Shown here: piece by piece, positions 7,314 through 63,475 of the stretch
How the letters are laid out: each line of letters begins with the position of its first letter
Numbering within the stretch: the stretch's first letter is position 1
Assembly: GCA_023105745.1 (NCBI GenBank)
Contig: JALGQZ010000009.1
Location: 45,723,967-45,787,966, forward strand
DNA from: Austropuccinia psidii
Lineage: Eukaryota > Basidiomycota > Pucciniomycetes > Pucciniales > Sphaerophragmiaceae
Length of the DNA: 64,000 nt
Direction of reading: 5' to 3'
Translations under genes and position numbers: made by a program
Notes under the pieces: generated by a model
Databases searched by the model: none
What the model was told of the DNA's origin: nothing
The model's input: only the letters and a program-made list of their open reading frames with translations

Positions 7314-7608
7314 ATGAGCTCAAAGCTGACTTCCATATATGAATAAAATCACTCCGATTTCCCACCTTCTGTACTTTATGGTACTGGTGTCTTTGATAAC
7401 TTGAGGGAGCTTTCTGAAGAGAGTATGGCCCCTACAGAGATTTAATACATTAATAAAACCTATGATGGGCTCAAATCTGTCAGAGTTATTGAGCCACCCT
7501 GCATCAATTGTCAGAACAAGGGGGTTCCTTGTGTTGAATCTTCTACTGCTAGGTCCCCCAGATTTCAATCCTGAAAACTTGGGAAAATAAATTGCTCTCA
7601 GGCCAACC
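7314..7608 (+). pseudogene. Antisense Zn2Cys6-like gene of element G, 5' part
   Basis: The first exon of a gene on the strand opposite to G gag-pol. It starts at ATG 7314 (Met-Ser-Ser-Lys-Leu-Thr, as in the element I copy at 52792). In the same frame, beginning at 7500, the codons give C-x2-C-x6-C, then ten residues, then TTT, two residues, TGA, six residues and TGC. Positions four and five of a Zn(II)2Cys6 pattern are thus each one base from a cysteine codon. Early in-frame stops (codon 11, and a TAA near 7442) show decay. Solo LTR K interrupts it at 7609 and the frame resumes at 34871. The family role is unknown; a DNA-binding role is inferred only from cysteine spacing. Confidence 0.65.
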
Positions 7609-8258
7609 TGTCACAACCCTGCAAAATGACCCCCCTCAATTGGTGTTTATGGTAATTCAAGCCTCTACCAATATATGGCCAATTTTTCCATATTCTCAAT
7701 ATTACACTGTTTGAAACCTTATGGCAGGGAATGGCCTTTTGCCAAATCCACTCTTCATGGCCATTCATGTCCCCAAGGCCATATCCTGCATCATTGGCCT
7801 CCTTGGCCAATTCTTCATCTTTCACATGGTGGAATGTGATCTACAACTTGCCAGTATTAACCGGTCTTTCAACTGGTTTAATAGCCTTTTTGGCAAGAGT
7901 TCCCTTTGCTGAGGTCTGGCAGACAGCATTTTGAGACCATCCCACCAACCCCCAGGCTAATGCCTTAATTCTGGGCCTGGGGTCATTTAGCATTCCAGGG
8001 GCCTCTGGCCCCTCTAAATATATCCAGGGCCTTTGGACCACCCCCTTTGATTAATGGATTTGGGCAAATTAGGCCCTTTTGGCCCAATTCCAATGAGGCC
8101 AAAAGGGGCCAAGGGACAGTCCAGTTGGCCCACCTGCACAGGGGTTTGGCAAAAAAATTGAGACCTAAAATGACCCAAAACCTCAAATTGGCCCAAGTAC
8201 CCAAGACACTCAATTTGGCCATGAGTGGCCATTCCACTCAAGATCCCAAGAAAGGCCT

Positions 8259-34544: not shown

Positions 34545-34870
34545 GCTTAAGTCAGTCATTCGTGCCTTTTTCTTTGCCTTTCAGTGGATATTGGTGGTCA
34601 TATCCCTTACTAATTCCATTTTTTTGTCTGGAAAGTTGAAACAGTGAATTGAGGACTCATTTGGTTGGCTCTTTAGCTTTTGGCTTTTCTCTCATTATTC
34701 TTTGGCCTTTGACTTCATTCTCATCTTTGGCATATCTTGTATTCCTCTCATTTTCCCTTAAAGAAATACATTCTTTTATTTCTTTATTCTGTTGGAGCCC
34801 TCCAAGTGAGTTCTTGATTCTTGAGTGCCAGGCCACTCTTGTTTTCCCCAAAAGCCCCTATGACAAAACT

Positions 34871-35486
34871 ATAGGTTCCCATAAAATAACACAAGATTAT
34901 GGAGCAGCATCAAGAAGGGTGGAAGATTTGGATTGGAAGCTCCTGTTGATGAACCCCCAACCTCTGATTCCATCTCTGGTCACTCCAATTGTGAGTTGAT
35001 TGGTCAAGGAGTTTCTGAGTTTGTGACTTTTATGGTTTTCTTTTCTTCTGCTTCAGTTACTGGATCTAGGATGAAAGTTGTTCAAAAATGGAATAGTACC
35101 AACAGCTCCTGGGCCAGCATCAGAGGACCCATTCACCCCCAAGGAAACCCCTTTGGAGTGGCCCCAGAGGTTCCTATTTTTGGTTCCCAGAAATGATGGA
35201 AGACTTGAAAGATTGAAGAGAAATCTAGTAGTCAAAGATGCTGTTGACACTGGTGCTGAAGGTAGTGATGAAATAGATGTAGAATAACTGTTGCCACTGG
35301 AATATTAATGGAAATTTAACTGATCAAAAGAGAATTAATAAGAAGGTGGTCACATCCTTGTCTAAAGAGGTGGATGCTTTGACTGAGGCTTTTGTTGATA
35401 TAGCTATGAAGAGTGCTGTTCCAGGTGAAGCCAGTAGGGCTTTGGATAAGGAGGAGGTTTCTTATGACAATTCCTTGGTTTTTTGA
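34871..35486 (+). pseudogene. Antisense Zn2Cys6-like gene of element G, 3' part
   Basis: Continuation of the gene begun at 7314, after solo LTR K. The first codons rejoin the frame; they are followed by a Trp-Ser-Ser basic segment and GRFGLEAPVDEPPTSD, then Ser-Asn split by an intron (34991-35056, gtgagt..cttcag, phase 1) and Thr-Gly-Ser-Arg. The element I copy has the same intron position and phase (Ser-Asn-Leu/Phe-Thr-Gly-Ser-Arg). An acidic GAEGSDE segment near 35258 matches DAEGSDE in I. A last open stretch rich in Lys/Glu/Ala ends at TGA 35484-35486 and differs from the I copy. Stops and frame changes show that the gene is dead here. It converges on the G pol gene. Confidence 0.65.
34991..35056 (+). 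other. Conserved intron in the element G antisense gene
   Basis: 66 bases with GTGAGT donor and TTCAG acceptor, inserted after the first base of the codon following Ser-Asn. The orthologous intron in element I (53175-53226) has the same donor, position and phase but a different length and interior. Confidence 0.7.
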
Positions 35487-35792
35487 TTTTAGTGAATCCT
35501 TGAAGAAAGCTTGACCAAGATTATATGTAGTTGGTCATTATTATTACTAGTGTTTTGCTCTTTTATTATTGAATTACTTGAGCTCCTAATACAAGATATG
35601 GGAGTGATGACTTCTGCTTTTGAAACAAGAATGATACAAGTAAAAGAGATCAAAGAAAAATAAAAGAAAAGAATTGAGAAAAAGGAGAGAGTAAAGAAAA
35701 GTAAAATAGAAAAACTTCTGAGAGGTTTCCTTGTTGTGGTGAGCTGCTTAATTTTGGCCATAAATTTTCTGAAAGATAAAACCAAGCATTTT

Positions 35793-45615: not shown

Positions 45616-45629
45616 AACATGATCTTCAC

Positions 45630-46967
45630 TCAGGCTTTTCCCTGGCTGGGAAATTTTCCTGACGGTTGGGTAAGCTTGTTTTGAGGCCTTTTGAAACAGG
45701 ACTCAAGACTATGCTTCCCACCACAATAGGTACAAAGACCCTCCTTTATTCTTCTTTCTTTTTCAGAGTTCATGAGCTTGAAATCTTTATTCAACAAAGA
45801 AGAATGGGGCTTGTCCCTCTTCTGAAAATTCTTCTTCTTCTTTTGACTAGAGCTTGAAGAATTTTGAGGATGAGAAGAACTTGACTTTGAGGCTTCTGGC
45901 TTCTTCTCTTGATGATGACTCTTTTCATTTTGCCTCTCATGGTACCTGGTATCAAGCTCCAGGGTAACGTCCATTAAGTCTTGAAGAGAGTCAATTCTTG
46001 AAGGATGGGAGGCCAATTGATCCAAAATCCTGGATGGCAATCCCTTCCTGAAATGATGGATGAGAGCTCTTTCACCCCAATCCCCAATTCTTGAGACTAA
46101 GCTTCTGAAATCAGCAATGTATAAGGATACATGCCCACCTTCTTTCATTCTTAAAGAATCCAACTCAGCTTCTGCTTTTCTGACTTCATTCGGGTCACCA
46201 AATAAAGTGAAGAGTTGAGATTCAAATAAAAACCAAGAATTGAGAAGGTAATTTGAATCTTGATTGGTGAGATTGGAAAGATAAGGCTCAATCCATTTTG
46301 CAGCCCTGCCAATGAGAAATGAAGTGGCATAAAGGACCTTCTTTCTGTATTGAGCGAAGTTTGCCGGATCATTATGAAATATCAATTGACAAGACTGAAT
46401 GAAACTTCTAACTTTGAAGGGCTGAGTCCCATCAAAGCATTCTGGTGCCTTCATAGATGGAGTCTTGAAGGCTGGTGGTCTTGATGCTTCAGAAGATGAA
46501 GCTGCTTGAAGATTGGCCATAATCTGAGTCATTTGCTGCATGATGGCCAATAAAGATGGTTCAGACTGATGAGAGACAGGCTGATTAGACTGGGCTAGAG
46601 TTGGCCCTCCAGTACCTTGGGATGCCTCCACCGGAGCAGGGACACCTTCAGTACCATCAGACTCTTCCTCTTCCACAGAATTCTCCTCCTCCTCTTCACC
46701 ATCTTCACCTGGACCTTTGAAAATAGTCCTTGAAGTTCCTGGAAATCCGCCAACTACTCCTGAGAATGAACATGATCTTCTTGGCGCTCTTCCTTCCTTC
46801 CTGGATGGTGCTGCTCCTTCCATGCGGGGTCCTCTATCTAATTGGGCCCTCAGTTGAGGAACTGCTGGGGTGCCATCTAGAGGAGCTCTTGGAGTTGGAG
46901 TGAGAACAGCTTGAGCTCTGGCCTGAGATCTTGTCTGTCTTGCCGGAGGTGAATGTTGAACAGGCAT
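45630..46967 (-). CDS. Element F Gag (445 residues)
   Basis: It starts at ATG 46965-46967 with a Pro/Arg-rich N-terminus, an acidic Glu-rich stretch (about 100-115), a capsid region (about 165-300, with FDGTQPFKVRSF and the conserved SLYIADFRSL) and a basic Ser/Lys-rich tail ending in a zinc knuckle C-x2-C-x3-H-x4-C near residue 415. That is one residue shorter between C2 and H than the usual CCHC. It coats and packages the element RNA. The stop is TGA 45630-45632, six bases after the GGGAAAA heptamer; pol continues in -1. The I Gag is a clear relative, more diverged in the N-terminal half. Confidence 0.93.
   Translation of the reverse strand: MPVQHSPPARQTRSQARAQAVLTPTPRAPLDGTPAVPQLRAQLDRGPRMEGAAPSRKEGRAPRRSCSFSGVVGGFPGTSRTIFKGPGEDGEEEEENSVEEEESDGTEGVPAPVEASQGTGGPTLAQSNQPVSHQSEPSLLAIMQQMTQIMANLQAASSSEASRPPAFKTPSMKAPECFDGTQPFKVRSFIQSCQLIFHNDPANFAQYRKKVLYATSFLIGRAAKWIEPYLSNLTNQDSNYLLNSWFLFESQLFTLFGDPNEVRKAEAELDSLRMKEGGHVSLYIADFRSLVSRIGDWGERALIHHFRKGLPSRILDQLASHPSRIDSLQDLMDVTLELDTRYHERQNEKSHHQEKKPEASKSSSSHPQNSSSSSQKKKKNFQKRDKPHSSLLNKDFKLMNSEKERRIKEGLCTYCGGKHSLESCFKRPQNKLTQPSGKFPSQGKA
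45636..45642 (-). other. -1 ribosomal frameshift heptamer GGGAAAA (F)
   Basis: In the Gag frame the bases read G GGA AAA, fitting the X XXY YYZ rule for -1 slippage, just before GCC TGA. After slipping, the frame continues without a stop into the protease. The same heptamer, distance and stop occur in G (49485-49491) and I (60216-60222). Confidence 0.75.
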
Positions 46968-47665
46968 GATAACAGGAATAAAATTGAATTAAATGAATAA
47001 GAATCAAAATTTGCTTGAAGTGAAAAGAGTCAACAATCAAATCTTGAGGAAAATCAATGAATCAAAATGAAAATCTTCAGGTACGTCAATAAATCAAAAT
47101 CAAATGAAGTCTTGAAGTCAAAATCAAATCAATCAAATCAATCAAAATAAAAAATCTTGCAGAATCAATCAATCAAATGAAAATCTTGAAGAAAAATCAA
47201 TTTATGTCAAAATTCTTGATGTGAAAAAATCAGCAAAATCAATGAAATCTTCAGGTCAATCAATTTTCTTGAGGTCAAAATCAAATATGTCAAATCAATC
47301 AATCAATCAAAATCAAGTGGATTATTCTTTAAAAATCAAAATTCTTGAAGAAAAAATCAATTATGAATCTTGATGTGAATAACGTGTCTGAATATCTTGA
47401 TGAAAAATTTGAAAATCAAAGAAAATCAAGATTACGCCTGAATTATGAATGAGAATGAAAATTTGATGATTTGAAAAGATTTTAAAAAAGAATAACAAAA
47501 ATAAAAAATGGGTCAGCTTTCAATTTTCAAAATGAAGAATGAATGAAAGAAAATTGAGAGATGACGATGAATCATTAAGTTCATAAGCGTAAAAGAATCA
47601 TAATTTCGATGAAATGAGTGAATGAAATTATAAAGAAAGAATGAACAGAATGAAAAAGAAATTAT
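46968..47665 (-). other. Low-complexity 5' leader of element F
   Basis: About 700 bases between the primer-binding site and the Gag start, dominated on the plus strand by caat/tcaa runs such as aatcaatcaatcaaa. No ORF. Element I has the same kind of leader (61566-62127), so the composition, rich in TTGA on the RNA, is a family trait. Confidence 0.7.
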
Positions 47666-47680
47666 CAGTTAATTAATATA
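47666..47680 (-). other. Self-priming primer-binding site of element F
   Basis: The plus strand reads cagttaattaatata one base from the LTR edge. The same 15 bases occur on the minus (sense) strand of both F LTRs exactly where the transcript is predicted to begin (near 40029 and 48067). The RNA 5' end and this site are therefore complementary, as in self-priming Tf1/sushi elements. No tRNA-type TGG start is present. Confidence 0.75.
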
Positions 47681-47681
47681 A

Positions 47682-49221
47682 TGTCACAGGGGCTCTTGGA
47701 CAGAAATACAAGAGTGGCCTGGCACTCAGCAATCAGGGAACTCACTTGGAAGACTCCAAAAGGATAAAGAATAAAACTAATAAGAATGAATTCCTCTAAA
47801 AGATATGCAGGTACAAGATGAGATGCAAAAGAGGAAAGGGAAGCCAAATGGCCAAAGAGCCAACCAAGTAAGTCCTTAATCACTGTTTCAACCTGCCAAA
47901 AATGAATAATGGAATTAGTAAGGATATGACCACCAAATATCCATTGACAGGCGAAGAAAGAGAAAAGAGAAAGGTGCTAAATGACTGACTTAATAATATC
48001 AGTATTTGCTTAACTAAAATGAAAAGAAAATAGAGATAAAATAAAATCAAAATATATTAATTAACTGGGGAAAACCCCCCAGGGTGGAAAGGGTAGCCGG
48101 TATATGTGAAAAGTTGGGAGCTTGAGTTCTTCAGGCTGAAAACTGATCTGTATTGATCCTTGAGGCTGTATTGATTGTTTTGGGAATTGATACAGCTGGC
48201 TAATATTTAAATTGAATTGGGTTGAATGAATTTCCCATGATTGAAAATGAAATACAGGTCTTGATGGATCCAGACTGTATTGAAATGAATATGGTTGCCA
48301 AGATGGATTGAGTGGAGCTTTGACACTTGACAACTTCTTTTTGGCACTGCCTCTTGAATACACTTGAGAATGAATTGAAAGTATTCCCTTGGAATGAATA
48401 CTTGGAGTGAGAATAACCAATGACTGCTTGATGGCGTCATTGGTCTTTGACGCTGAAACACTTGCTCTTGAGCCTTGATGATTCCTCTGAATGATTGGGT
48501 GCCTTGATGACGTGATGAGATGTTGGAATGTTGAAATGAACATTTGATATTGCCACCATTGAATTGCTGTTGAAAAATGATGCACAATGATATATAACAT
48601 CATTTATGGCATATTGGTTGATTGGCAAGAAGATTACGTCCAAAGGTCTTGAGATGGAAAGGCAGAGGGAAAAGGATGGATGTAATGACTTCAGAGCTTG
48701 GAATGGTGTTTCTGGGCCTTTTGGGGTTTTTGGCCATTTTTGGGTCCTGAGCCAAAAACTGGCCCAAAAGGCGGGAAAGTGTCTTTTGGACACTTTGCGT
48801 CAAAGTGCGCAAAAATGCGCAAAAGTGCGCAAATGCGCAAAGTGCGCAAAAATGCGCAAAATGCGCAAATGCGCAAAGTGCGCAAAAAGTGCGCAAATGC
48901 GCAAAAGTGCGCAAAATGCGCAAAAATGCGCAAATGCGCATTATGAGCCCAAATGGCCAAAAACAGCCATTTGGGCCATTTCCCCTGGTTTTGAGGGAAA
49001 TGACCAGAAATACCCATTTGGGCATAAATTGCCGCTATGGGTTCTGGATTGAGGTGAAGGGCCATGGAGGCCCCAAAACACAAATGGCCATAAATGGGCC
49101 ATAAGATAATGACGTGGCCATATTGGCCACTGGTGATGGATATGGCCAATTGGCCATAAAAGAACCGTGGCTTGATATGCCATATGGGGATCCAAGGAGG
49201 TGAATTGCCATGGTTGTGACA
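47682..49221 (-). repeat. 5' LTR of element F (1540 bp)
   Basis: Same termini and internal order as the 3' copy; promoter CATATACC near 48100-48105 and inverted repeat 48065-48082. It is 76 bp longer, almost entirely because of a longer GCGC minisatellite and a small ccataaatggg duplication near 49087-49103. Confidence 0.93.
48805..48939. repeat. GCGC minisatellite in F 5' LTR, 15 units
   Basis: I count fifteen GCGC cores in (A/G)TGCGCAA(A) units, against eight in the other LTR of the same element. The array lies in U3, upstream of the promoter. Confidence 0.9.
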
Positions 49222-49883: not shown

Positions 49884-51110
49884 TGTGAGACTTAGAGGTA
49901 TTTTCAGATATCCAAAAGACCACAAATAATAAAATAATATACAATTATAAATAAAATAAATTTATTTATATTATAAACAAAAAAATTCAAATATAAATAT
50001 AAATTTATACACAAAAATTAAAATTTAATTATAATTTAAAAATAAAATTACATTGAATTTCAAATTTGTGAAAATACATTTTTATTTGAAAAAATCAAGT
50101 AAAGTTTAATTTTCAACAAAAACACCAAAATTAAAATATTTTTAGAAAAACATTAAATACAAACTACCATAACTCTTTTTCTTACAAAAAACATATGAAA
50201 ATTGCTTTACCATTGGAATCCTCATAAAAAATAAGGTGGGGTCACCTCTGGATACAATTTCTGTAACTCAACTCTAAATAAGCTTAAATTAAGTTTTTAG
50301 TATTTTCTGTACAAAAGTTGAAAATCCTCAAAACCAATCTTTGATTAACATCACATTTGGTGTTAAACATCAATTTTTGTGTCAAAATTGAGGTGCTGTG
50401 TGTAATTTAGAAGTTATGAGGAATTGAAGTATTTTCAATCAAAATGTCAAAGTGTGCACATGTATTACATAAGTGAACTGAAATTTACATATGAGGTATC
50501 AATTATTACTGTTGTGTACTGCAAAAACTCAATTGCATTGCATGTGTAAATTACAAGTGTATTGCATGATGAGGAATTAAAGAAAAAATAAATTGGAAAG
50601 ATTAATTCTGGGTGGGAAAGGAACTCTAGCTTTAAGGGGGAGCCAGACCCCCAAAGTCTTTGCTGACCGGCGTGAGATGTCAAACTCCACACAAAGTTTC
50701 ATCAGTTTCGCCCTGGAATTGAGTCACAGGGTCTGTGAATCAATTGATGATGAGAGTTTGATACCAACCAGGGCAGTATAACTGTTTCCAAGAGGGTAAA
50801 GCTACCCTTAAGCTAAAACAATCTTGGTAAAGACATTTTGAAATTGTTTTTATATCTTCTACACAAATTCTGACGTGTTTTGAAGGCTCTAGATCAGGTA
50901 TTACTAAAGTAATCGCTGATTTAAGGGTCTAAAATGGCTAAAACCAGCCCTTTTTTAGTCCAAACCAGGGTTTAATGATTCCATAATTGGATTTTCTGTT
51001 GTCAGAGTGTTTTCCACGACTTACAAGAGTAAACTTTACTTTTGGAGTAAGAAAATCATGGCTATAAAAGAATGTCTTCTTTGCCCCACTTTTCTCTTCA
51101 TGTTAGAAGC

Positions 51111-51856
51111 TGTCACAGGGGCTCTTCTAAGTGAAGAGGGCCTGGCACTCAGTAAACAAGGACTCACTTATGGAGGGATCAAGGATATGATGAAGAGGAA
51201 TACACTTAAGAGTGTAATAAGATGAATTACTAATAGAAGGAATATAAGAAAAGCAGCACCAAAGAATAAGAGTAAGAAATAAAAGAGCCAACCACAAACA
51301 AGTCCACGTCCCCTGTTTCAACCTGTCAGAATGGAAAGAGAAGGGTTAATAAGGATATGGCAACCCAACTCATACTGTACAGGCGAAGAAAGAAAAGCAA
51401 AGACTAACTCAATATTAAATAAATATAATACCAAAAAATAAGGATAATAATATTTATGAAATAATAAATAAACTAAATTAATTAACTGGGGAAAAGTCCC
51501 GAGGGGGGAGAAAGAGGGGCTGGTATATGTGAGAATCACCAGCCCTGATCCAGAGAGAGAATTTCCATGAGAGGATTTGATGATTGAATTGAGTCTGACC
51601 AATACAGGGCCTGTACAAGAGGAGTGGTGGTATTGGGTGATCATACAGTTTAGAAATGGTGTATCCAAAACTGTATTGGGTAATTCCAACCTGTACAAGT
51701 ATTGACAGGCTGTATTGATGAACCAGACTGTATGCATGTTTCAGCAAGAAAGATTGCTGAAACTGAATGTTGATACACACAGTAGATTTGCTGGTTTTAA
51801 GGTGTTTGAGTGGGTGTAAGTATGAATGCCCTTACCCCTGATGAGTGGTTGTTACA
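51111..51856 (-). repeat. 3' LTR of element I (746 bp)
   Basis: It starts TGTCACAGGGGCTC and ends GGTTGTTACA. On the minus strand CATATACC (51522-51528) precedes the start block AGTTAATTAATTTA (complement of 51474-51487). It lacks the long G+C-rich U3 seen in F and J. Confidence 0.92.
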
Positions 51857-52791
51857 GTATCCCCGTCTTGAAACTGGTGGGCTCCTGAACACCATAATAC
51901 CCTGCCACTGTTGAGTGGCATCTCACTATCCTGACATTTTTTCAAAAAAATGCCTTTTAATTTTCTTTTCCTCTTGACCATTATCCCAAAAATTCTTTTT
52001 CAATTCCCCCCTTCCAAATTGATTTGATCCCCCTCTTCTTTAACTTGAGTAAGTCTTCCACTTCAAAATATGCCTTCTTGTATTCTTTTGATTCAATAAG
52101 TCCTTCTTTTTGGGCCATGGCCTTCGGTTGTATCCCAAAGTGATGGCCACTGAGCTCTTCTGCTCAAAAAGTGATACAAAATGAGTATATGAATGTATAC
52201 TAATATGTCAAGGGTCAACCTGATGTTGGGCCCTTCCTTGCCTTAACTGAATATGTCTTGGAAAAGAGTCTTCAAGGGGTCCTGTCCCCATTTACCTTGA
52301 AAATACCTCCCCTGGCCTTACCATAGCTATTTTGGGCCTTGTCCCTTGCTAGGGTACTTGCTCAAATTAATTTTATGGCCATTTGGGCCTCTTTTGGGTC
52401 TTGGGGTGAAAATGGCTGAAAATTGGTATATGGCCATTTTTGGCCTATTTGAAGTTTTTTGGTGTCCTACGGTCTGCGGGCTGTACGCTGCGGTCTGTGG
52501 TCCGTGGGGGCTATTGGAGGCCTCCAGGACCAAAATGGACCCCCTGGGCACAATTTTGCTGGGGACCCATTGAGAGGGTCCAGGACCATCAATATCCTGG
52601 CCTCCCCAAAGTTGCAGGTGAGGTCCTGGGTGATGAATTCAGCCCCAAAGGGGTCTTGAATCTTTACCTTGGAGGCTTTGAGGGGGGGGACCATAATTGG
52701 GTTGTGGCGCCGTTTCCTTGAGGTCATAGTTTTTTACTTGAAGTGGACTGATTCTGACGTATTGAATCTTCTGCTTGCATATTTCTTAGTC
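51857..52791. other. Element I region between 3' LTR and antisense gene
   Basis: Next to the LTR is a weak polypurine tract (CAAGACGGGGATAC on the minus strand) and the ggtgggctcctgaacacc block shared with F and G. The remainder is non-coding. Around 52467-52510 a G+C-rich patch repeats variants of cggtctg/ggtccgtg, resembling the cggaccgta repeats of LTR J. Open frames over 52327-52727 look accidental. As the upstream region of the antisense gene it may hold its promoter; none is evident. Confidence 0.5.
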
Positions 52792-54032
52792 ATGAGTTCC
52801 AAACTTACTGAACTCACTTAATCTTCTCCTTCTGCAACGCCACCTTCTGTTCTTTGTGGTTCTGGCTTCACCCTCCATGGCTTCTTCTGGCCATTTCAAT
52901 CCCTCCCAAACTTATGACGGTTACAAGGAAGTTGAAGTTCTTGATCCTGCTTGTATTGAATGTTTGGCCAAGGTTAAGGATTGTTTTCAACATTAAAATC
53001 CCCAATCTTCAAAGTGTCACTATTGTTTCATTGGAAAGAAGCCATGTCGTCGTACCGGGGTGCAAGCTTCAAATGTCAGGAGGTATTTATGGAGTAGAAA
53101 AGATGGGCCTTTTGGAAAAGAGTTTCCAGTTTCTGAGGCACCCACTCCTGATGGAACTTCAGGGTTTTCTAATTGTGAGTAATTTGAGTATTTTGATTGA
53201 ATTTTGTACTGATATTCTTGATTTAGTGACTGGTTCTAGGCAGGTGAATGTGGCAAGGTGGATTAATGTTGGAGGACCCATTCCGGCTGGTGGTAGGCCA
53301 ATATACTCCAGTTCAAAAGTCCCAATATCCAGAATCAACACTGACAGTGTAGTGAAGAGAATAAGAAGAGTTGCTTATTCCCCACTTGATCCAGATGCTG
53401 AAGGCAGTGATGAATTGGATGGTGAAGAAGTTGAAGTTGCTCCTCATTCAATTGGCCATCCATCCAGCACTTCCTCTTCTCAGCCTCTTTCCAACAGATT
53501 CCATGGTCACATAATTCCCAGTACTCCCAGAACTTTCCAACCTACTCTTGCTGCCATTCCTAATTCCCTTCCTCCTGCTTCACCAAGTCCTTCCCATTCC
53601 AGGCCTGCATTGAATCAAGCAGCAAGACCATCACCCATCCAGCAACCTAGGCACTCACTCATAGCCATCTCTCAACATCTCCAACCTATGGCCAGTTCCA
53701 GCAGAAGAAGAGATGGCTTTTCTCCTTTACCGTTTCCTGCCACTCAAGTATTCCAAAGAAGAGATTGTTGGCCTATCCAAGTTACCAGAGAAGATCCAAA
53801 TGCGGCGAGTGAAAACCAAGAAGCTGTGTCCAGGTTGTTCAGGAGAGTTGATAGAAATAGTAGGGAGGTGATCATGTATGCAAATGATAGAACTATTCCA
53901 GGGACTGCTTCCAAAGAGATGACTGAAAAATTTTCCTAGTATGAAGATGAGTTGATAAATGACTTTCAGAGAACCTTTTATGCTTTGAAGAGAGATAGCT
54001 GGTTTCCTTGTCTTTGTTTGTTGTTGGTTTGA
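52792..54032 (+). pseudogene. Antisense Zn2Cys6-like gene of element I
   Basis: A gene on the strand opposite to gag-pol, tail-to-tail with pol. It starts with Met-Ser-Ser-Lys-Leu-Thr at 52792, as in G. After a frame change, the frame from ATG 52877 gives C-x2-C-x6-C-x10-C-x2-C-x6-C (cysteine codons at 52952 through 53045), the spacing of fungal Zn(II)2Cys6 DNA-binding clusters, followed by a basic RRTG..NVRRYLWSRKD segment. An intron (53175-53226) separates this from a second exon with a VGGPIP motif, Arg-rich patches, an acidic DAEGSDE stretch, a long Ser/Pro-rich region and the C-terminal block LFRRVDRNSREV. Stops at 52819, 52994 and 53937 show decay; the frame after the last runs to 54032. 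Transcription-factor function is inference from spacing only; a generic zinc-binding module is the alternative. Confidence 0.72.
53175..53226 (+). other. Conserved intron in the element I antisense gene
   Basis: 52 bases, GTGAGT donor, tactgat near 53207 as a possible branch site, and TTTAG acceptor. Splicing joins Ser-Asn to Leu-Thr-Gly-Ser-Arg in phase 1. It lies at the same position as the 66-base intron in element G. Confidence 0.75.
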
Positions 54033-54273
54033 CTTCTATCCCCACTCTTATAACTACTAAAAATGCAAAAATAAATGGAACCTCCCAATACATGATTTGG
54101 GAGGGGATACTGCTGCTTTTAAGAAATGAAAGAAAAACAAAATTATACAAGTAAAGAAAAAGGAAAAAGATTGGGAGAAAAAGAAATAAAGAAATTCCTG
54201 ATGGTTTGTCCTTCTTGTAGTGAGTTGCTTGATTTTGGCCAAGAATGTCTGGAAATGAAAACCAAGCATTTGA

Positions 54274-54677
54274 TGCTCACAGAGTGGCCAAGGTAATGTT
54301 TTACAAGAAGTAGAACCCTCAGGGATGCATACCAGGAGATGGAACTTACTTTCATAACTCCTACTCCCCACCAAGCACCCTAAAAAAAACAAATTTCCAT
54401 AAATGACTTGAAGTAATGAATGTCTTGAATAATGATGATTTGCATAAATTGAAATATTGATAAAGAGAAAAGAAGAGATCAGGACATATCTTGATAAGGT
54501 CCAAATTGGAGGGTATTGATATTGCATGCTTCCTGAATCTGTCCAGAAAGTTTACAAGTGCTCACAAAGTGGCCAAGGTTATTCCTAAAACAACATATGG
54601 GTAGAATACCCCCTTAAATGTGCATTCCAGGAGAGGAACTTACTTTCATAACTTCTTCTCCCCACCAAGCACCATAA
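54274..54677 (-). repeat. Duplicated pol 3' UTR motif of element I
   Basis: Copies at 54274-54382 and 54559-54677, about 285 bases apart. Both retain GTAAGT on the sense strand inside ATGAAAGTAAGTTCC, as well as the gtggggag and tgagca blocks. They lie between the convergent ends of pol and the antisense gene. Confidence 0.75.
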
Positions 54678-57600
54678 ATAAAACTCTTGAGGTATTTGGA
54701 CCAGGCTTACCAGGATACAATGAATGGAAATACTTGACAAGGTCTGGTGAGTTGGTAAGGTTGGAAGCTGGTTCCCAACTTGTTCTTTCTGGTTCTTCAC
54801 TGAATCCTTTCCACTCTACAAGATACCATAATTTACCTCTTTTGAGTTTGGAGTCCAGAAACTGAGCCACTTCCCATTCTTCTTACTCCTCCACTAAGAC
54901 TGGTGTTAGTGGCAATTGATGTTGATTTGGGATAGCTGATTGCTTTACTGGTTCTAATAAGGACACATGGAATACAGGGTGAACTGACTTCCATTGTTGA
55001 GGAAGATTGAGGTGGCATGCATGACTTCCAATCTTATTAATGACTTCAAATGGTCCCATTCATCTTTCCAAGAGTTTCTTGGTGGGTCTTGAAGTCTTGA
55101 TTTTCTTGGAAGCTAGCCATACCCTATCCCCAGGTTGGAAATCAGGTGGGATTTCTCTATTTCTATCTGCATACTTCTTGAACCTCCTTATTGCTGTCTC
55201 TAATTCTTCTTTGACAACTTGCTGTACTGATTGGAGTTTTGTTGATAACTTTCCAGAAGGGGAGTCTTGAGAAACATTGATTGAGTCAAAGCTGGGATTT
55301 CTTCCATGAATGGTGAAAAAAGGTGATTGGTTTGTTGATGAATGTTCTGCATTATTATAGGCAAATCCAGCCAGAGGGAGCCAGGTGTGCCAGTCACCTT
55401 GATGATAACTGACATACATCCAAAGATACTGTTCTAGAATCTGATTTACCCTCTCTGTCTGTTCATCTGTTTCAGGATAAAATGCAGTTGAAAGATCTCT
55501 TGATATCTTGAGCTGCTGGCATAATTGAATCCAGAATGATGAAACCAATATAGAACCCCTATCACTAACAATATCAACTGGAACCCCATGTTTTGAAAAA
55601 ACATGGCTAATAAAGATTGGAGCTAAGTCCAGAGCAGTGATTGTTCCATAAGTTGGAATTAATATTGCCATTTTTGAGAATCTGTCCACGACTACTAGAT
55701 TTCAATCAAATTTGTTGGACAGTGGCAATTGACTAATAAAGTCCATTGATAATGAATTCCAAGGACCAGATGTAATTGAAAGAGGCTTTAGTAATCCAAA
55801 CTTCTTATGATGAATGTTCTTGTTTCTTGAACATTGCTGGCATGATGACACATAGTCCTTAATGAATTGATTCATTCCAGCCCAATAAAAATCCCTCTTG
55901 ATGAGCTTGAGGGTCTTCTCCTGGCCAGGATGGCCAGCCAATGGTGATTCATGATGCTTTTGAAGAATATTGAGTTGGATTTCTTCATTGCTTGGAATTA
56001 CCACTCTATCTTTGAATAATAACAACTTGGCTTGAGATTCAAGAGAATAATCTGGAACTGATTCACCTCTTGCTAGTTGCTTGACTATTTCTTTAGAATC
56101 ATTGTCTTGCCATACTTCTTTTTGAATCTTGTCAACTAAATCTGAGAATATTTCCACTTTTATTGAGAAGAATCTTGACTCTTGAATTCCATCTTGCTTG
56201 ATTACTTGATGAAAATTTTGATGGTTCTTGCTGATGAAGTCCACCCCCCTCTCTGGGTACATGTTGTCCCAACGTGACAATGCATCGGGTAAAGTGGCCA
56301 GCCTTCCAGAGAGGTAAGTACTAGTGAAATGAAACTCAGAAAGAAATTCAGCCCAAAGGGCCTGACAACAAGTAAGACATTTAGAAGACATGAAATACTG
56401 AAGGGAAGAGTGGTCTGTCAGGACCTCAAAAGGATTGGAAAGAGAAAGAAGGAAAGCTCTCCAGCGCTTGAGAGCCCAAACTATGCCAAGGAGTTCCTTG
56501 TCATGAATTTCATAGTTGATCTCAGCTGGAAGCAGCTTGTGACTATCAAATGCAATGGGATGCTTTCCTGAGTCATTAACCTGACTCAGTACAGCACCCA
56601 AAGCATAATCAGAAGCATCAGTCCCCACTATAGTTGGTAGAGAAGGATTGAAATGAGCGAGCATATGTGCAGTGGTGAATGCTTCTGTGAGTATTTGAAA
56701 CTGGCTAAGAGCTTCCTCATGGAAGACAAAGGGAGAGTCTTTTTTGAGAAGGGAAGTGAGAGAAGTGATTTTTTTAGAGTAATTTTTTATAAAACAAGGA
56801 TAAAAATTGGAAAAACCAAGAAAATATTGAAGGGCTTTGATGTTTCTGCGCTGAGGCCAATGGAGAATTTCCTGAGATTTTGAAGAATCCATCTTGAGGC
56901 CTTCACTTGAAACAACATAGCTCAAGTCTTCCACACTTGGAGGCTTTAGCAAACAAATTATTCTCTCTCAGCCTTTGGAGGACAGAGGTCACATGTTTGA
57001 CATGTTCTTCCTCAGAACTGGAGAAAACCATAATATAATCTAGATAAACCACAGCAAACACATCCAAAAAATATGCAAATATATCATTCACTAGATTCTG
57101 GAAAGAAGCTGGAGCATTTGTGAGCCTTAGAGGTAATTTCATGTACCCAAAAGACCACAAATACAAAAATTAGTATATAAATATAAATAAAATAAATTTA
57201 TTTATATTATTAAAATAAAAATTAAAATATAAATATAAAATTATATTCAAAATAAAAAAATTTAATTAAAATTTAAAATTAAAATTACATTAAATTTTGT
57301 AATTATAAAATTACATTTATACTTGAAAAATTTAAGTAAAAATGAAATTTTAACAAAATTGTGAAAAAATAAATAAATTTGGAAAAAAGTTAAATAAAAT
57401 TTATTATAACTTTTTATCCAATAAGTAAACATATAAAATTTATTTCACCATTGGATTCCTCATAAAAAATCAGGTGGGGTCACCTCTGAGTGAAATTTTT
57501 GTAACTCAACTCTAAATAAGCTTAAATTAAGTTTTTAGTATTTTCAATACAAAAGTTGAAAATCCTCAAAACCTTAATTTAATTCACACCACATGTGGTG

Positions 57601-60195
57601 TTAACCATCAATTTTTGTGTTAAAATTGAGGTGTTGTGTTTAGTTTAGAAGTTATGAGGAATTGAAGTATTTTCAATTGAATTCAATTGAAATGTCAAAA
57701 TGTGCGCGTGTATTACATAAGTGAACTTTGATTTACATATGAGGTGTCAATTATTACTGTATTTTACTGTACAATTGAATTGAATTACATATGTAAATTA
57801 TAAGTATAATACATGATGAGGAATTAAAGGAAAAATAAATTGGAAAGATTAAATTTGGGGGGGAAAAGGAACTCCAGCTCTAAGGGGGAGCTAGACCCCC
57901 AAATTCCTTGCTGACAGGCGTGGGATGTCAAAATTCACGCAAAAGTTCATCACTTTTGGCCTGGAATTGAGTTACAGGGTCTGTGGACTCAATTGATGAT
58001 GAGGTTTTGATATCAACTGGGGTAGTTTTAGCTGTTGCCAAGAGGGTAAAACTACCCTTAAGATAAAACAATCATAATAAAAACAGTTTTAACTGGTTTC
58101 TACGCCTCTGACACACATTCTGACGTGTTTTGAAGGCTCTAGGCCTGGTATTGCTATAGTAATGGCTGATTTAAGGGTCTAAAATGGCTAAAAATGGCTT
58201 AAACCAGCCCTTTTTTGGTCTAAACCAGGGTTCAATGATGCCATAATTGGCTTTTATGTTGTCAGACTGTTTTTCACGACTGACAAGAGTAAATTTTACT
58301 TTTGGAGTAAGAGAATTGATGGCTATAAAAGAATGTCTTCTTTGCCCCACTTTTCTCTTCATGTTAGAATCTTTTCCTTTTATTAATTAGTTTAAAACTG
58401 TTAAACCAATCAATCAAAGATTCCAACCACCACTTTTAAATCATTTTAATCCTTTTAACCACGTGAAAAAATCATTATAATCATTGTTTGTAACTCTTAT
58501 AATCATTTTTACCCCTGAACCACCCCAAAAGTGAATTAAAGCATCTTTCATCACTGTTAACTTTGTCACTTTGTTTCCAAATTCACTCTGGTCACTTTTG
58601 GGCGTGTTTTCTCTTTAATATTCTTTTTAAAGACTTTGTTCTTTAATTAATTGCTTGCAGTTCTTTGCTCAATTAATTCCAATTGAAATTGCTCTTGAAG
58701 AAATTTCTTTTGTAGCCTTAAAATATCTCTTGTAGAGTATTTTTTGGATAAATTTTTATTGTTGGTAAAACAATAAATTTTTATAATATTATTGTTTTAT
58801 ACTAATAAAGTTATAAACAATAAAATTGGCGTGTTTTCTCTTAAAAATAATATTTCATACTATTTTTAACTGAATTTTACCTTATACAAATTTTGAGGAC
58901 AGGAAAAGTACTTGATTTTTAATCAAAGTTTCATATCCACACCTTACAGCATTTGTCAAACCAAATGGCATGACCAAATACTCATAACTACCATACTTGG
59001 TTATAAAAGCATTTGAGTGCTCATCCCCCTCTTTGATTCTCAGAAGGTTATATGCACCACACAGGTCTATCTTGGAGAAGATAGTGGAACTGTTGAATAC
59101 GGTAAGGAGCTGGTTCATAGGAGGAACAGGATACCTGTTCTTCCTAGTGACAGCATTGAGCTTGTGGTAGTCAATACACAGATGAAGGCCTCCATCCTTT
59201 TTCTTGACAAAAAGGACAGGTGCTCCTGTTGAAGAGGAGCTTGGTTTTATGAAACCTTTCTCTACATTCTCTGAAATGTAGGCCTGCAGTGTTTCTGACT
59301 CTTGGTTTTATAATGAATAGATAACACCAATTGGAGGTAGAAGACCTTCCAATTTGATATGATGATCACAGGCGCAGTGTGGAGGAAGTTTCTCTGCCTT
59401 CACCTTGGAGAATGCATCCAAATATTGGTTATAAGCAGGAGGGACTGCCTTCAACACAGTTTCAATCTCTTCTTGCTCTTCCTTTTCATCCCACTGCTCC
59501 TCTAGGGAGGCATCAAAAGATAAAGGACAAAGGTCCATATCCCCTTGAAAGAGATGAAGTGAAGATATAGCAACATCTTCTCCAACATCTTTTATCTCTT
59601 TGAAGACTTCATCTCTTAATTGAAATAATGACTGAGAGGGAATGATGGAAGGGATATGGACAGAAGAAGGAATGGAAGGTGTCTTAAGTTCACAAACCAG
59701 AGCAACACTGATGACAGCAGTGGCAAAGTCATTACTAGCAGAAGGAAGAGTACCACTAGAATCCTTATGACTAGAATAATAGGTGATCAATCCATTTTTC
59801 CAATCAATGATGGGATTTAAATGGTAAAGGAAACCATAGCCCAATATCAGGTCTTCTCCTTTGGGTGAATGAATGATAAAAAAGTCCCGTTCAAAGCTTG
59901 GGAAGGAATGCAAGTCAACTACCCACTTGGTATAATGGGTGATAGACAAGGCAGGGCATTCATTTGAATCAAGAATGAAAAGATTCCTTTTTTCAGGAAG
60001 CTCTGACATAATCAATGTGTACTTGAGAACAAAATTCTTTGCAATAAAAGAGTTTGTAGCACCAAAATCAATGAGAATACTATAGAAGATATCAGAGACA
60101 AAAGAAAAAATAAGAAACTTTAAAGATCTCTTGACACTATTATTCAGAGTGCACAATTGTGCTCTTGAAGGAAATAAGTGAGAACCATTGAACAC
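54646..60195 (-). pseudogene. Element I Pol, split by solo LTR A2
   Basis: From the right: protease and linker (59308-60195; active site IDFGATNSF, the usual Ser replaced by Phe); RT N-terminal half (58949-59307; [12 protein letters not shown], then MPFGLTNA) up to LTR A2; RT second half (56903-57118; YLDYIMVF in place of YLDD); RT thumb, RNase H and integrase finger (55702-56952; RNase H TDASDYALG, CQQC); integrase core (55060-55689; VSDRG, TERVNQILE); and a chromodomain (54646-54870; WYLVEWKGF..TSWEP). Several stops and frame changes separate these blocks. The D, D and E of integrase are still present, but the RT catalytic motif is damaged. Confidence 0.88.
57119..58948 (+). repeat. Solo LTR A2 (1830 bp) inside element I RT
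   Basis: Nearly identical to the element A LTRs: it begins TGTGAGCCTTAGAGG and ends CACACCTTACA, with TATAAAA at 58324-58330. Exact GCATT duplications (57114-57118 and 58949-58953) flank it. The interrupted RT reads cleanly across the joined flanks (LTNAPASFQNL). Its close match to A makes it a recent arrival. Confidence 0.96.
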
Positions 60196-60209
60196 ATCAC
60201 GATTCCCAC

Positions 60210-61565
60210 TCAGGCTTTTCCCTGCTTGCTAGGGAAGCCTCTTGATGACCCAGGCTTGTTCTGAGGTCTCTTGAAGCATTTTTCAATTGGGTGCTTTCCA
60301 CCACAATAAGTACACAACCCCTCTTTGATCCTCCTCTCCTTTTCAGAATCATTTAATTTATTGTCCTTATTGAGGAGAGCAGCATGGGGCTTGTCCTTTG
60401 AAGATTGAAATTTCTTGCCCTTCTTATTCTTCTTTTGGTGAGGCCACTTTGATGAGTTCTGAGCAGGCCTAGATTGATTGAACCCAGTAGCAGGAGGCTT
60501 CTTCTCTTGATTGCCACCCTTTTCTTTTTGCCTCTCATGATATCTTGTGTCTAATTCTAAAGTGACATCCATAAGTTCTTGAAGAGTATCAAAAGCTACA
60601 GGGTGAGAAGCCAGCTGGTCCAATAATCTTGATGCCAATCCTTTTCTGTAAACATGGATATAAGCTCTTTCCCCCCAATCTCCAATTGTTGACATTAAGC
60701 TTCTGAAATCAGCAATGTACAAGGATACATGACCACTTTTCTTCATCTTCAGATTGTCCACTTCCTGTTCAGCTTTTCTGACTTCATTGGGGTCAGCAAA
60801 CAGAGTGAATAATTGAGTTTCAAATAACTGCCGATTATTGAGGAGGTAGGAAGGATCTTCATTGGAAATATTTGAGAGATAGGGTTCAATCCATTTTCCA
60901 GCTCTACAAGTGAGAAAAGAAGTTGAGTAAAGAACTTTCTTTCTTCCAGAGAAGAAATTTGCTTGGTCATTATGGCAAATTAATTTACAGGATTGGATAA
61001 ATCCTCTCAATTCATGAGCTTGAGTACCATCAAAAGAATTGGGTGCCTTCATGGACGGAGTCTTGAAAGCAGGGGCTTTGTAATTGTCCCTGGGGGTAAC
61101 TGCTTGAGTGATTTGCCCCATGAATGGAGTCATTTGCTTCATCATCTTGAGGAGAGTTGGTTTGGCATGAGAGGAAAGAGGTTGATTAGAAAGGGCTAGA
61201 TTAGACCCCTGAGGCACCTCTGGAGCATTTTCCAAAGAATCCACCACTTCAGTGTCCCCAGAATCTTCCTGTTCCACAGACTCTTCCCCCTCTTGATCTT
61301 CAACTTCCCCTAGTCTTGCTCTTGCACCTTCAGACATGCCAGGGTAGCCAACCAAACATCCAGAGAAAGATCTGGATCTTCTTGATTTCATTCCCCCTCT
61401 TCTTGAGGGTGCTGCTCCTTCCATTGGTGGCCCTCTGTCCAAGTTTGCACTCAGTTGATGAACTGATGGTGTGCGGTCAAGAGGAACCCTTGCTGTAGGA
61501 GTGAGGATGGCTGGATTTCTTTGAGATCTAGTGTTATTGGCTGGAGGGCTATGCTGAACTGGCAT
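60210..61565 (-). CDS. Element I Gag (451 residues)
   Basis: Open from ATG 61563-61565 to TGA 60210-60212. N-terminus Pro/Arg-rich as in F (MPVQHSPPA), an acidic stretch (about residues 90-110), a capsid block with FDGTQAHELRGF and SLYIADFRSL, a basic Lys/Ser tail and a C-x2-C-x3-H-x4-C knuckle (CTYCGGKHPIEKC). The GGGAAAA heptamer precedes the stop, and pol follows in -1. It is the only fully open frame of element I. Whether it still functions is unknown, since Pol in cis is dead. Confidence 0.9.
   Translation of the reverse strand: MPVQHSPPANNTRSQRNPAILTPTARVPLDRTPSVHQLSANLDRGPPMEGAAPSRRGGMKSRRSRSFSGCLVGYPGMSEGARARLGEVEDQEGEESVEQEDSGDTEVVDSLENAPEVPQGSNLALSNQPLSSHAKPTLLKMMKQMTPFMGQITQAVTPRDNYKAPAFKTPSMKAPNSFDGTQAHELRGFIQSCKLICHNDQANFFSGRKKVLYSTSFLTCRAGKWIEPYLSNISNEDPSYLLNNRQLFETQLFTLFADPNEVRKAEQEVDNLKMKKSGHVSLYIADFRSLMSTIGDWGERAYIHVYRKGLASRLLDQLASHPVAFDTLQELMDVTLELDTRYHERQKEKGGNQEKKPPATGFNQSRPAQNSSKWPHQKKNKKGKKFQSSKDKPHAALLNKDNKLNDSEKERRIKEGLCTYCGGKHPIEKCFKRPQNKPGSSRGFPSKQGKA
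60216..60222 (-). other. -1 ribosomal frameshift heptamer GGGAAAA (I)
   Basis: G GGA AAA in the Gag frame, followed by GCC TGA, identical in layout to F and G. The -1 frame is open from here into the protease. Confidence 0.75.
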
Positions 61566-62127
61566 TATGAAGAATTAGAATAACAAATTGATGGTATTAA
61601 AAACAGAAATCAAAGCTTGTCCAAATCAATTCAGTCAATAATCACAATCAATTCAAATAAAATATCATTAATCTTAAGTAAATCAATAATCAATCAATAA
61701 GTGTCTTCAATATGAAAATCAAAGTCTTTAGGAATCAATTCAAATCTTGAGGTGAAATTAAATTCAATAAATAATCAAATCAATTCTTGAGGATCAATCA
61801 AATATCTTGAGAGCTCGGAGTCAATCAGTCCAATGCAAATTGAATCCTGAATCGCTCAATCAATAAACCAAATGAATCCCAATGAATAATCCAATCAATC
61901 AACCAATCGATAACTGCTGATAAAACCTGAATATGAAGACAAAAGAAGTTTGATTTGAAATATAAAGAATGAAATGGAATGAGATGGTCGGCAATGATTA
62001 AGTAAAATAGGAGGAATCAATTTTCATATGAATGAAATGAATGAGGTGAAAATTGATGAGAGAAAAAATCATAATTTATTAATGAGAGAAATGAGTTTAA
62101 ATGAATGAAGAGAAAGAATGAAATATG
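61566..62127 (-). other. Low-complexity 5' leader of element I
   Basis: AT-rich stretch full of aatcaatc/tcaaat runs on the plus strand, no ORF, same style as the F leader. Confidence 0.65.
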
Positions 62128-62141
62128 AGTTAATTAATTTA
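62128..62141 (-). other. Self-priming primer-binding site of element I
   Basis: The plus strand reads agttaattaattta, one base from the LTR. The sense strand of the 3' LTR carries the same 14 bases at the predicted transcript start (complement of 51474-51487). It differs from the F site at one base, and the LTR partner differs in the same way. Confidence 0.72.
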
Positions 62142-62142
62142 A

Positions 62143-62888
62143 TTTCACAGGGGCTCATCTAAGTGAAGAGGGCCTGGCACTCAGCAAATGGGGACTCACT
62201 TATGGAGGGCTTAAGGATATGATGAAGAGGAATACACTTGAGAGTGTAATAAGATGAATTACTAATAAAAGGAATATAAGAAAAGAAGCAAAAAATAATA
62301 AGAGTAAGAAATAAAAGAGCCAACCACAAACAAGTCCAAGTCCACTGTTCCAACCTGTCAGAATGGAAAGAGAAGGGTTAATAAGGATATGGCAACCCAA
62401 CTCATACTGTACAGGCAAAGAAAGAAAAGCAAAGACTAACTTAATATTAAATAAATATAATACCCAAAAGTAAGGATCATAATATTTATGATATAATAAA
62501 TAAACAAAATAAATTAACTGGGGAAAATTCCCCAGGGGGGAGAAAGAGGGGCTGGTATATGTGAGAATCAGCAGCCCTGATCCAGAGAGAGAATTTCCAT
62601 GAGAGGATTTGATGATTGAATTAAGTCTGTCTAATACAGGTCTTGTACAAGAAGAGTGGTGGTATTGGGTAATTGTACGGTTTGGAAATGGTGTATCCAA
62701 AACTGTATTGGGTAATTCCAACCTGTACAATTATTGACAGGCTGTATTGATGAACAAGACTGTATGCATGTTTCATAAAGGAAGATTTCTGAAACTCAAT
62801 GTTGATACACACAGTGGATTTTCTGGTTTTAAGGTGTTTGAGTGGGTGTAAGTATGAATGCCCTTACCCCTGATGAGTGGTTGTTACA
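62143..62888 (-). repeat. 5' LTR of element I (746 bp)
   Basis: Same length as the left LTR. The left terminus is mutated from TGTCACA to TTTCACA; the right terminus is TGTTACA. A perfect inverted repeat CTGGGGAA..TTCCCCAG lies at 62518-62535. The start block has lost three bases compared with the 3' LTR. Confidence 0.92.
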
Positions 62889-63475
62889 GAAGCCTTTCCT
62901 TTTATAATTAGCTTAAACACTGTTAAGACAATCAATAAAAGATTCCAACCACCTTTTTTTAATCATTTTAAACATCTTATCATGTGAAAAAATTATTATA
63001 ATCATTTTTTTGTAACTCCTATAATCATTTTTTACCCCTGAACCACCCCATAAGTGAATTAACACATCTTTCATCACTGTAAACTTTGTCACTTTGTTTC
63101 CAAATTCACTCTGGTCACTTTTGAGCATGTTTTCTCTTTAATAATATTTTTAAAGACTGTGTTCTTTAATTAATTTCTTGCATTTCATTTCTCAATTAAC
63201 TCCAATTGAAATTGCTCTTGACAAGATTTCTTTTGTAGCCTTAAATATCTCTTGTAGAGTATTTTTGGATAAATTTTTATTGTTGGTAAGACAATAAGTA
63301 TTTATAATATTACTTTTTTATACCTATAAAGTTAAAAACAATGAATTTGGTGTTTTTTCTCCTAAAAATGATATTTCATAATATTTTTAATCAAATTTTT
63401 ACCTAATACAAATTTTGAGGATAGGGAAAGTACTTGATTTTCAATAAACGTTTCATATCCACACCTTACAGAAGC

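What the first reader, a model, noticed from the sequence alone, without database searches (positions are those of the whole stretch)
52792..54032. Retrotransposon-borne antisense gene with a Zn(II)2Cys6-type cysteine pattern
Seen: between pol and the 3' LTR of element I, on the opposite strand, one frame gives C-x2-C-x6-C-x10-C-x2-C-x6-C (codons from 52952 to 53047) followed by basic residues, then a spliced second exon with basic, acidic and Ser/Pro-rich segments. Known: this spacing fits the fungal GAL4-type binuclear cluster rule (C-x2-C-x6-C-x5-12-C-x2-C-x6-8-C), and antisense extra ORFs are reported from some plant Gypsy elements such as Grande. Inferred: a Gypsy lineage captured, or evolved, a DNA-binding protein that could regulate the element or host chromatin. 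I know of no described Zn2Cys6 gene in this position.
Basis: partly seen in the sequence, partly recalled or inferred. Interest (0 to 1): 0.88.

Follow-up and report, generated by a model that had tools for sequence, protein, structure and literature searches.

The report
Antisense cysteine-cluster gene in retrotransposon
A very abundant jumping gene of a rust fungus carries, on its opposite strand, an extra intron-containing gene for a protein with six evenly spaced cysteines, and the pattern of mutations suggests that this protein was kept useful while the element was still spreading.

Summary
Element I (51111-62888, minus strand) is a Ty3/Gypsy element of an Austropuccinia psidii-like rust genome. 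Between its pol and 3' LTR, on the opposite strand, lies a two-exon gene whose first exon encodes C-x2-C-x6-C-x10-C-x2-C-x6-C. This copy is dead: a frame change, a TAA inside the cysteine cluster and a TAG near the end. Of 39 other genomic copies, 33 have pol downstream on the opposite strand and none on the same strand; 33 of 39 have the LTR where expected. Variants shared by five or more copies are enriched about threefold at third codon positions (26/23/69; singletons 219/196/205; P=4e-7), as in pol, so the antisense protein was under purifying selection in spreading lineages. A second subfamily, about 35% identical, keeps position, orientation, intron site and cysteine spacing. Membership in the GAL4-type Zn_clus family is not shown: the best score is 15.9 bits against a cut-off of 21, over part of the profile, and structure prediction was uninformative. 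Antisense accessory genes are known in plant Gypsy elements and in Botrytis Boty (brtn), so this is a new variant of a known kind. DNA binding and regulation remain inference.

The parts
51111..62888 (-). Element I, Ty3/Gypsy (chromodomain type), with 5-bp target duplication GAAGC at 51106-51110 and 62889-62893; nested in a 1.83-kb repeat and itself interrupted by another copy of that repeat (57119-58948)
   Evidence: self-comparison and LTR edges; gag/pol matches
51111..51856 (-). 3' LTR of element I
   Evidence: pairs with 62143-62888, 93.7% identical by BLAST
62143..62888 (-). 5' LTR of element I
52792..53174 (+). antisense gene, exon 1 (MSSKLT..., holds the cysteine cluster); frame broken in this copy
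   Evidence: ATG in 34 of 40 copies
52952..53047 (+). six-cysteine cluster C-x2-C-x6-C-x10-C-x2-C-x6-C, with a TAA at 52994-52996 in this copy
53175..53226 (+). 52-nt intron, GT..AG
   Evidence: 52 nt in 39 of 40 copies, GT and AG both kept in 35 of 40
53227..54032 (+). antisense gene, exon 2: basic, acidic and Ser/Pro-rich segments, C-terminal segment YEDELINDF...; TAG at 53937 in this copy
54682..60279 (-). pol of element I, interrupted by the insert 57119-58948
   Evidence: tblastn with the open pol of element II; domains of that relative incl. chromodomain
60213..61568 (-). gag of element I
34867..35540 (+). 3' part of a V-type antisense gene beyond the pol end of element III, opposite strand, intron of 66 nt (my count) at the same place; exon 1 cut off by another insertion (end approximate)
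7314..7694 (+). 5' part of a V-type antisense gene, about 1.5 kb from the start of an LTR-like stretch (5780-6202)

Best explanation
The finding is one dead copy of an accessory gene of a fungal Ty3/Gypsy lineage. The gene lies antisense between pol and the 3' LTR, has a short intron that splicing of the antisense transcript would remove, and encodes a protein of about 390 residues: an N-terminal six-cysteine (probably zinc-binding) cluster, a basic segment, acidic and Ser/Pro-rich segments and a conserved C-terminal segment. Shown: position, orientation, intron site, cysteine spacing in two subfamilies, and a mutation pattern that means purifying selection on the protein in lineages that were transposing. 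Inferred: the gene is transcribed by the host polymerase from its own promoter in the 0.9 kb between LTR and ATG (as reported for maize Grande); the protein acts in the nucleus, binds nucleic acid or chromatin through the cluster and basic segment, and tunes expression or integration of its own element. Being antisense lets the intron survive, because the genomic RNA carries only its complement.
For: Variants shared by 5 or more of 40 copies fall 26/23/69 on codon positions 1/2/3 while singletons are flat (219/196/205), P=4e-7, in both exons (7/7/25 in the main part of exon 1; 18/15/41 in exon 2), thresholds 3 and 8 agreeing (P=7e-6, 6e-6); pol as positive control 18/7/51, P=5e-8. In exon 2 only the gene's frame has few stops; in exon 1 two + frames have few, and only the cysteine frame has the third-position signal. 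Position: pol opposite and downstream 33 of 39, same strand downstream 0 of 39, LTR as expected 33 of 39. V-type subfamily: 33-36% identical in exon 1 (three pieces) yet same spacing, cysteine codons kept in 8/7/8/5/4/5 of 8 copies, pol opposite in 4 of 4, intron at the same place.
Against: No transcript, zinc, DNA-binding or localisation data. The gene diverges faster than pol (33-36% against 67-73% for a pol piece in 3 of 4 flanks), and the young element II of the same window, with open gag and pol, shows no trace of it, so it is not required for transposition in general. In dead copies the cysteines are no better kept than other residues (off-majority 0.10-0.20 against a mean of 0.13), and only 1 of 8 V-type copies has all six. 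The copies were chosen by similarity to the gene, so copies without it were not counted.
Confidence: 0.6

Rival explanations
1. It is a true GAL4-type Zn(II)2Cys6 domain, captured from a host transcription factor and since diverged beyond recognition by Pfam.
For: Six cysteines within the spacing rule. Profile-profile comparison with five yeast clusters aligns all six cysteines in order, probability 48%, P=1.8e-4. The three V-type pieces give Zn_clus as their only Pfam match, below threshold. The only solved-structure hit of the combined alignment, not significant (E=1.3), is a zinc-cluster protein, LAC9.
Against: No Zn_clus match for four I-type pieces. The V-type matches cover profile positions 18-33, 18-32 and 12-33 of 39, mainly the second half, aligned to the first three cysteines. 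In the halves test the second halves show no resemblance and the V-type first half a weak one to both GAL4-type halves. The five genome-wide Zn_clus matches do not include the window's contig. Cysteine spacing alone can drive such scores.
Confidence: 0.2
2. What matters is the antisense transcript (double-stranded RNA, silencing or interference with the genomic RNA), not the protein.
For: Antisense transcription with dsRNA effects is proposed as an alternative or parallel role for such genes in a review (PMC7264820, parts 1 and 2 of 3).
Against: Selection is on codon positions of the protein frame; spliced frame, intron site and cysteine spacing persist across subfamilies with little nucleotide similarity.
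Confidence: 0.1
3. The protein is an accessory factor that acts on RNA, particles or nuclear import/export of the element (Rev- or Gag-helper-like) rather than on DNA.
For: Small cysteine clusters and basic segments also serve RNA binding (established knowledge); fast divergence relative to pol fits an adaptable accessory factor.
Against: The gag of the related element II already has a CCHC-like knuckle (CTYCGGKHSLESC in an open frame; knuckle pattern recalled); no significant match of the pieces to any Pfam or NCBIfam family.
Confidence: 0.15
4. The frame and cysteines are a chance by-product of composition in a dead element.
For: This copy is broken in three places.
Against: 0 of 60 simulated windows; 987 database proteins match exon 2; third-position enrichment; second subfamily.
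Confidence: 0.02

Closest known systems
brtn of Boty-like Gypsy elements (Botrytis cinerea; Zhao et al. 2011)
   Same: Additional antisense gene in a fungal Gypsy element; the review places it between pol and 3' LTR (PMC7264820; reference title and a methods passage in PMC8365987). The 2011 paper itself was not seen.
   Different: I saw no sequence or domain of brtn and could not compare it; the review says no clear similarities were described for such proteins; nothing on a cysteine cluster or an intron was seen.
GENE23 of maize Grande, and antisense ORFs of RIRE2 and PvRetro13 (aORF-3R class)
   Same: Antisense, between pol and 3' LTR; in Grande transcribed from its own upstream promoter and nuclear (PMC7264820, parts 1 and 2 of 3 read).
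   Different: Plant elements; PvRetro13 ORF2 is described with an SMC domain; no cysteine cluster reported in the parts read.
TRP28 (PF04195) antisense proteins of plant Retand elements
   Different: Non-chromovirus plant lineage, different domain; no match of our pieces to PF04195 in Pfam scans.
Fungal Zn(II)2Cys6 cluster (PF00172; GAL4, PPR1, PUT3, LEU3, HAP1)
   Same: Six cysteines, C-x2-C-x6-C twice, loop length (10) inside the 5-12 rule given in the finding.
   Different: Below Pfam threshold; no CRxxKxKC-like first half in I-type.
HBZ of HTLV-1
   Same: Antisense accessory protein of a retrovirus, nuclear (stated in PMC11963269); spliced, starting near the 3' LTR (recalled).
   Different: bZIP protein (recalled); no homology claimed or tested.

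Membership tests
Fungal Zn(II)2Cys6 cluster (Pfam PF00172) | Spacing C-x2-C-x6-C-x5-12-C-x2-C-x6-8-C (rule as given in the finding) | tested here: met
   x10 loop and x6 last spacing in the window copy, with a stop inside; Cys the majority at all six codons in 40 copies; V-type same spacing
Fungal Zn(II)2Cys6 cluster (Pfam PF00172) | Score above the curated cut-off of 21 bits | tested here: not met
   no Zn_clus match for four I-type pieces; 14.9, 15.9 and 14.8 bits for three V-type pieces; yeast controls 5 of 5 match; own-genome search gives 5 matches, none on the window's contig C9
Fungal Zn(II)2Cys6 cluster (Pfam PF00172) | Basic first half of the CRxxKxKC kind (recalled, and visible in the five yeast sequences) | tested here: not met
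   I-type first halves P 0.30-0.38, second halves 0.54-0.69; V-type first halves 0.01-0.10, second half 0.16; controls 0.0000-0.0006
Fungal Zn(II)2Cys6 cluster (Pfam PF00172) | Two-zinc cluster fold | tested here: inconclusive
   AlphaFold2 mean pLDDT 37.1 and 50.1; Foldseek none at E<=0.001
Fungal Zn(II)2Cys6 cluster (Pfam PF00172) | Binds two zinc ions and DNA | not testable with these tools
   needs purified protein
Antisense accessory genes (aORF-3R) of Ty3/Gypsy elements | Between pol and 3' LTR, antisense to gag-pol | tested here: met
   element I; 33 of 39 further I-type copies with opposite pol, 0 of 39 with same-strand pol downstream; 4 of 4 V-type
Antisense accessory genes (aORF-3R) of Ty3/Gypsy elements | Present in most copies of the element family | tested here: inconclusive
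   copies were found through the gene itself; 4050 and 1342 first-look candidates, 40 scored in each search; copies lacking it were not counted
Antisense accessory genes (aORF-3R) of Ty3/Gypsy elements | Conserved like other element proteins | tested here: met
   third-position enrichment as in pol, though divergence between subfamilies is greater than in pol
Antisense accessory genes (aORF-3R) of Ty3/Gypsy elements | Transcribed antisense from its own promoter; nuclear product | not testable with these tools
   no RNA or protein data at hand
Ty3/Gypsy element with chromodomain | Protease, RT, RNase H, integrase, chromodomain; LTRs; short target duplication | tested here: met
   domains in the open related pol of element II, element I pol 73% identical to it in the main block, LTRs and GAAGC duplication

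The most novel reading that the evidence does not exclude
A Gypsy lineage that helped to swell a rust genome to about a gigabase evolved or captured its own six-cysteine DNA-binding regulator, encoded antisense with an intron. The cluster may be a rearranged relative of the fungal binuclear cluster, since the first half of the V-type domain matches the second half of the Zn_clus profile. The protein would bind its own element and control its expression or placement, with fast divergence between subfamilies reflecting element-specific recognition.
Probability: 0.22. Interest if true: 0.82.

Novelty: new variant of a known kind. Interest (0 to 1): 0.58.

Why it matters
Antisense accessory genes of LTR elements have no proven function in the reviews I read. 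Here one comes with many copies, a conserved splice site, a putative metal-binding domain and a measured selection signal, so protein function can be tested directly. It also warns annotators: 987 database proteins match exon 2 (the 120 listed are all from A. psidii MF-1), and one source labels one of them an RxLR effector.

Tried and rejected
Rejected: (1) that the TAA at 52994 marks an inherited truncation: it is scattered on the tree (11 steps for 13 copies with A at 52996) and lies in a context that mutates repeatedly. (2) That the 375-codon + frame 52812-53939 is the gene: it crosses the intron in another frame of exon 1, and in exon 1 the third-position signal belongs to the cysteine frame; some database gene models use it. 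(3) A start upstream of ATG 52792: the in-phase stretch 52729-52791 shows no third-position excess of shared variants (12/7/10). (4) A swapped-halves Zn cluster as a firm claim: only the V-type first half resembles GAL4-type halves (P 0.01-0.13 on the second-half pattern, 0.01-0.10 on the first-half pattern); I-type first halves give 0.12-0.23 and 0.30-0.38, and second halves nothing.

Led nowhere: AlphaFold2 of a whole protein and of an exon-1 protein, Foldseek (best 50 rows seen); NCBIfam; solved-structure searches; plasmid collection. Other rust species could not be judged: the first protein search listed only the best 120 of 987, the third the best 120 of 462, all A. psidii; a length-shifted search gave 5 proteins, all A. 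psidii. Element III's gene piece was searched in the genome once without an answer and not repeated.

Full report
1. What is there. The window lies in a genome of 1,015,390,075 bases in 84 contigs. The protein hits point to Austropuccinia psidii or a very close relative: the 120 listed of 987 protein relatives are all A. psidii MF-1. Element I runs from 51111 to 62888 on the minus strand, with LTRs 51111-51856 and 62143-62888, a GAAGC duplication on both sides, and gag and pol related to those of element II, whose pol is open. It sits inside a 1.83-kb repeat and carries another copy of that repeat in its own pol. On the plus strand, 52792-54032, lies a two-exon gene.

2. The observation. With stops allowed, the spacing pattern occurs once in the window, and in none of 60 simulated windows. 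This copy is dead.

3. Family and position. The own-genome search scored 40 of 4050 first-look candidates, all 40 matching at 85-100% identity, the window's copy among them. For the other 39 copies I read about 2.5 kb on each side. Pol lies downstream on the opposite strand in 33 of 39, on the same strand downstream in 0 of 39; the six without a pol match are L013, L015, L025, L033, L034 and L047. In L012, L036 and L041 a same-strand pol match lies upstream, beyond the LTR. The LTR ends 800-1250 bases before the ATG in the expected orientation in 33 of 39; missing in L014, L015, L021, L024, L035 and L039. Three database proteins that extend upstream also match the window's stretch between LTR and gene (P0121-P0123).

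4. Selection. In the alignment of 40 copies, letters found in one copy only are spread evenly over codon positions (219/196/205), as expected for dead copies. Letters shared by five or more copies, mostly inherited from lineages that were still transposing, fall 26/23/69 on positions 1/2/3 (Fisher P=4e-7; thresholds 3 and 8: P=7e-6 and 6e-6; CpG columns left out). Pol, read on the other strand in 28 of these 39 copies plus the window, shows the same (18/7/51, P=5e-8; threshold 3: P=4e-9); 33 copies gave a match there and five with 900 bases or less were dropped. Stops per 100 codons in exon 2 are 0.43 in the gene's frame and 2.95-8.74 in the other five. In exon 1 they are 0.82 in the gene's frame, 20 of its 33 stops falling on the codons 52994 and 53003, and one other + frame is also open at 0.42; the remaining four give 3.98-8.69. 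The copies are those most similar to the window's, so this speaks for that subfamily.

5. A second subfamily. The piece at 7314 belongs to a V-type family (1342 first-look candidates, 40 scored). Six further copies and one short one were read. Exon-1 identity to I-type is 33-36% for three pieces, yet the cysteine spacing is the same, as in CIDCQKKGVPC-x10-CQFCNLGKRNC (L049) against CTECLAKGKDC-x10-CHYCFIGKKPC. Cysteine codons survive in 8, 7, 8, 5, 4 and 5 of 8 copies for the six positions; one copy of eight has all six. Pol lies opposite and downstream in 4 of 4 tested copies. The intron stands at the same place and is 66 nt long by my count from the output in the two copies that I could delimit, L049 (the script's own figure of 67 is off by one) and the element III relic; in I-type it is 52 nt in 39 of 40 copies. 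For a pol piece of 213 residues, element I and V-type flanks are 67-73% identical in the three of four that gave a match, so the antisense gene diverges faster.

6. Is it a Zn(II)2Cys6 protein? By spacing yes; by family score no. Pfam gives no Zn_clus match for four I-type pieces (one chance-level match, E=0.15, to another family) and Zn_clus at 14.8-15.9 bits, cut-off 21, for three V-type pieces. Those partial matches align the first three cysteines mainly with the second half of the profile. Profile comparison with five yeast clusters aligns all six cysteines in order at probability 48%. A test of the residues between the cysteines recovers known halves (controls) but gives little for ours. 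Structure prediction was poor, and Foldseek found nothing at E<=0.001. I therefore call it a six-cysteine cluster that may work like a zinc cluster, not a member of PF00172.

7. Cysteine decay. In the 40 I-type copies, 20 of the 32 lost cysteine codons became phenylalanine (TTT or TTC), and the two codons after Cys6, CGT CGT in the window, read mostly TGT or CAT. Both fit mutation: G>T at TpG is about twice as frequent as elsewhere (50.6 against 15.6-26.0 per 1000) and CpG transitions are frequent (262.5 per 1000). Of 40 copies, 17 keep all six cysteine codons, 15 five, 7 four and 1 three. Of 165 database proteins aligned over all six positions, 56 have all six; these were ranked by similarity, so intact ones are favoured.

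8. How it most likely works. The intron can be tolerated because the gene is antisense: the element's genomic RNA carries the intron's complement, which is not spliced (inference). Expression would need an antisense promoter in the 0.9 kb between 3' LTR and ATG, as reported for Grande (PMC7264820). I infer a nuclear protein that binds nucleic acid or chromatin and tunes its element. Element II, with an open 1262-codon pol and a 452-codon gag frame, and LTR arms that differ by 5 substitutions in 1463 aligned positions plus gaps (94.7% by BLAST with gaps), shows no trace of the gene (best E 0.43; none), so the protein is an accessory trait, not a need of all relatives.

9. Known or new. [quoted passage not shown] only the reference title and brief mentions seen). 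The lists returned showed no title or abstract start that reports a cysteine-cluster antisense gene in a rust Gypsy element. I read parts or passages of seven papers (PMC7264820, PMC11963269, PMC8365987, PMC8063080, PMC12774611, PMC12210899, PMC12477816); in the two on the A. psidii genome the words antisense, zinc finger and Zn2Cys6 do not occur in the main text. Subscription papers are mostly outside this library.

Noticed in passing
window 52949, 52996, 53373, 53490, 53598, 53982 and the 40-copy alignment: Recurrent G>T at TpG (C>A at CpA) changes hit the same single sites independently in many dead copies: 6 of the 8 non-CpG columns with the most scattered variants are of this kind, and the rate is about twice that of other contexts. 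Cause unknown.
   Followed up: partly
window 39644-49221: Element II: young Gypsy element with open pol (1262 codons) and a 452-codon gag frame, LTR arms with 5 substitutions plus gaps, no trace of the antisense gene between pol and LTR.
   Followed up: partly
window 18379-20198, 26618-28437, 57119-58948, 49884-51111 with 62888-63470, 1-1659: A 1.83-kb repeat, two copies 99.7% identical, one split by element I and one inside element I's pol; its content was not studied.
   Followed up: no
window 52812-53939 (+): A 375-codon frame runs through exon 1 in another frame, the intron and exon 2; several database gene models use it. In exon 1 its register has few stops in 40 copies but no third-position signal of its own.
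   Followed up: partly
database protein P0119: One source names a copy of this transposon gene an RxLR effector protein, probably a mis-annotation.
   Followed up: no
database proteins P0124, P0125: Gene models that fuse a stretch of another retroelement polyprotein to the tail of the antisense gene, probably from nested insertions.
   Followed up: no
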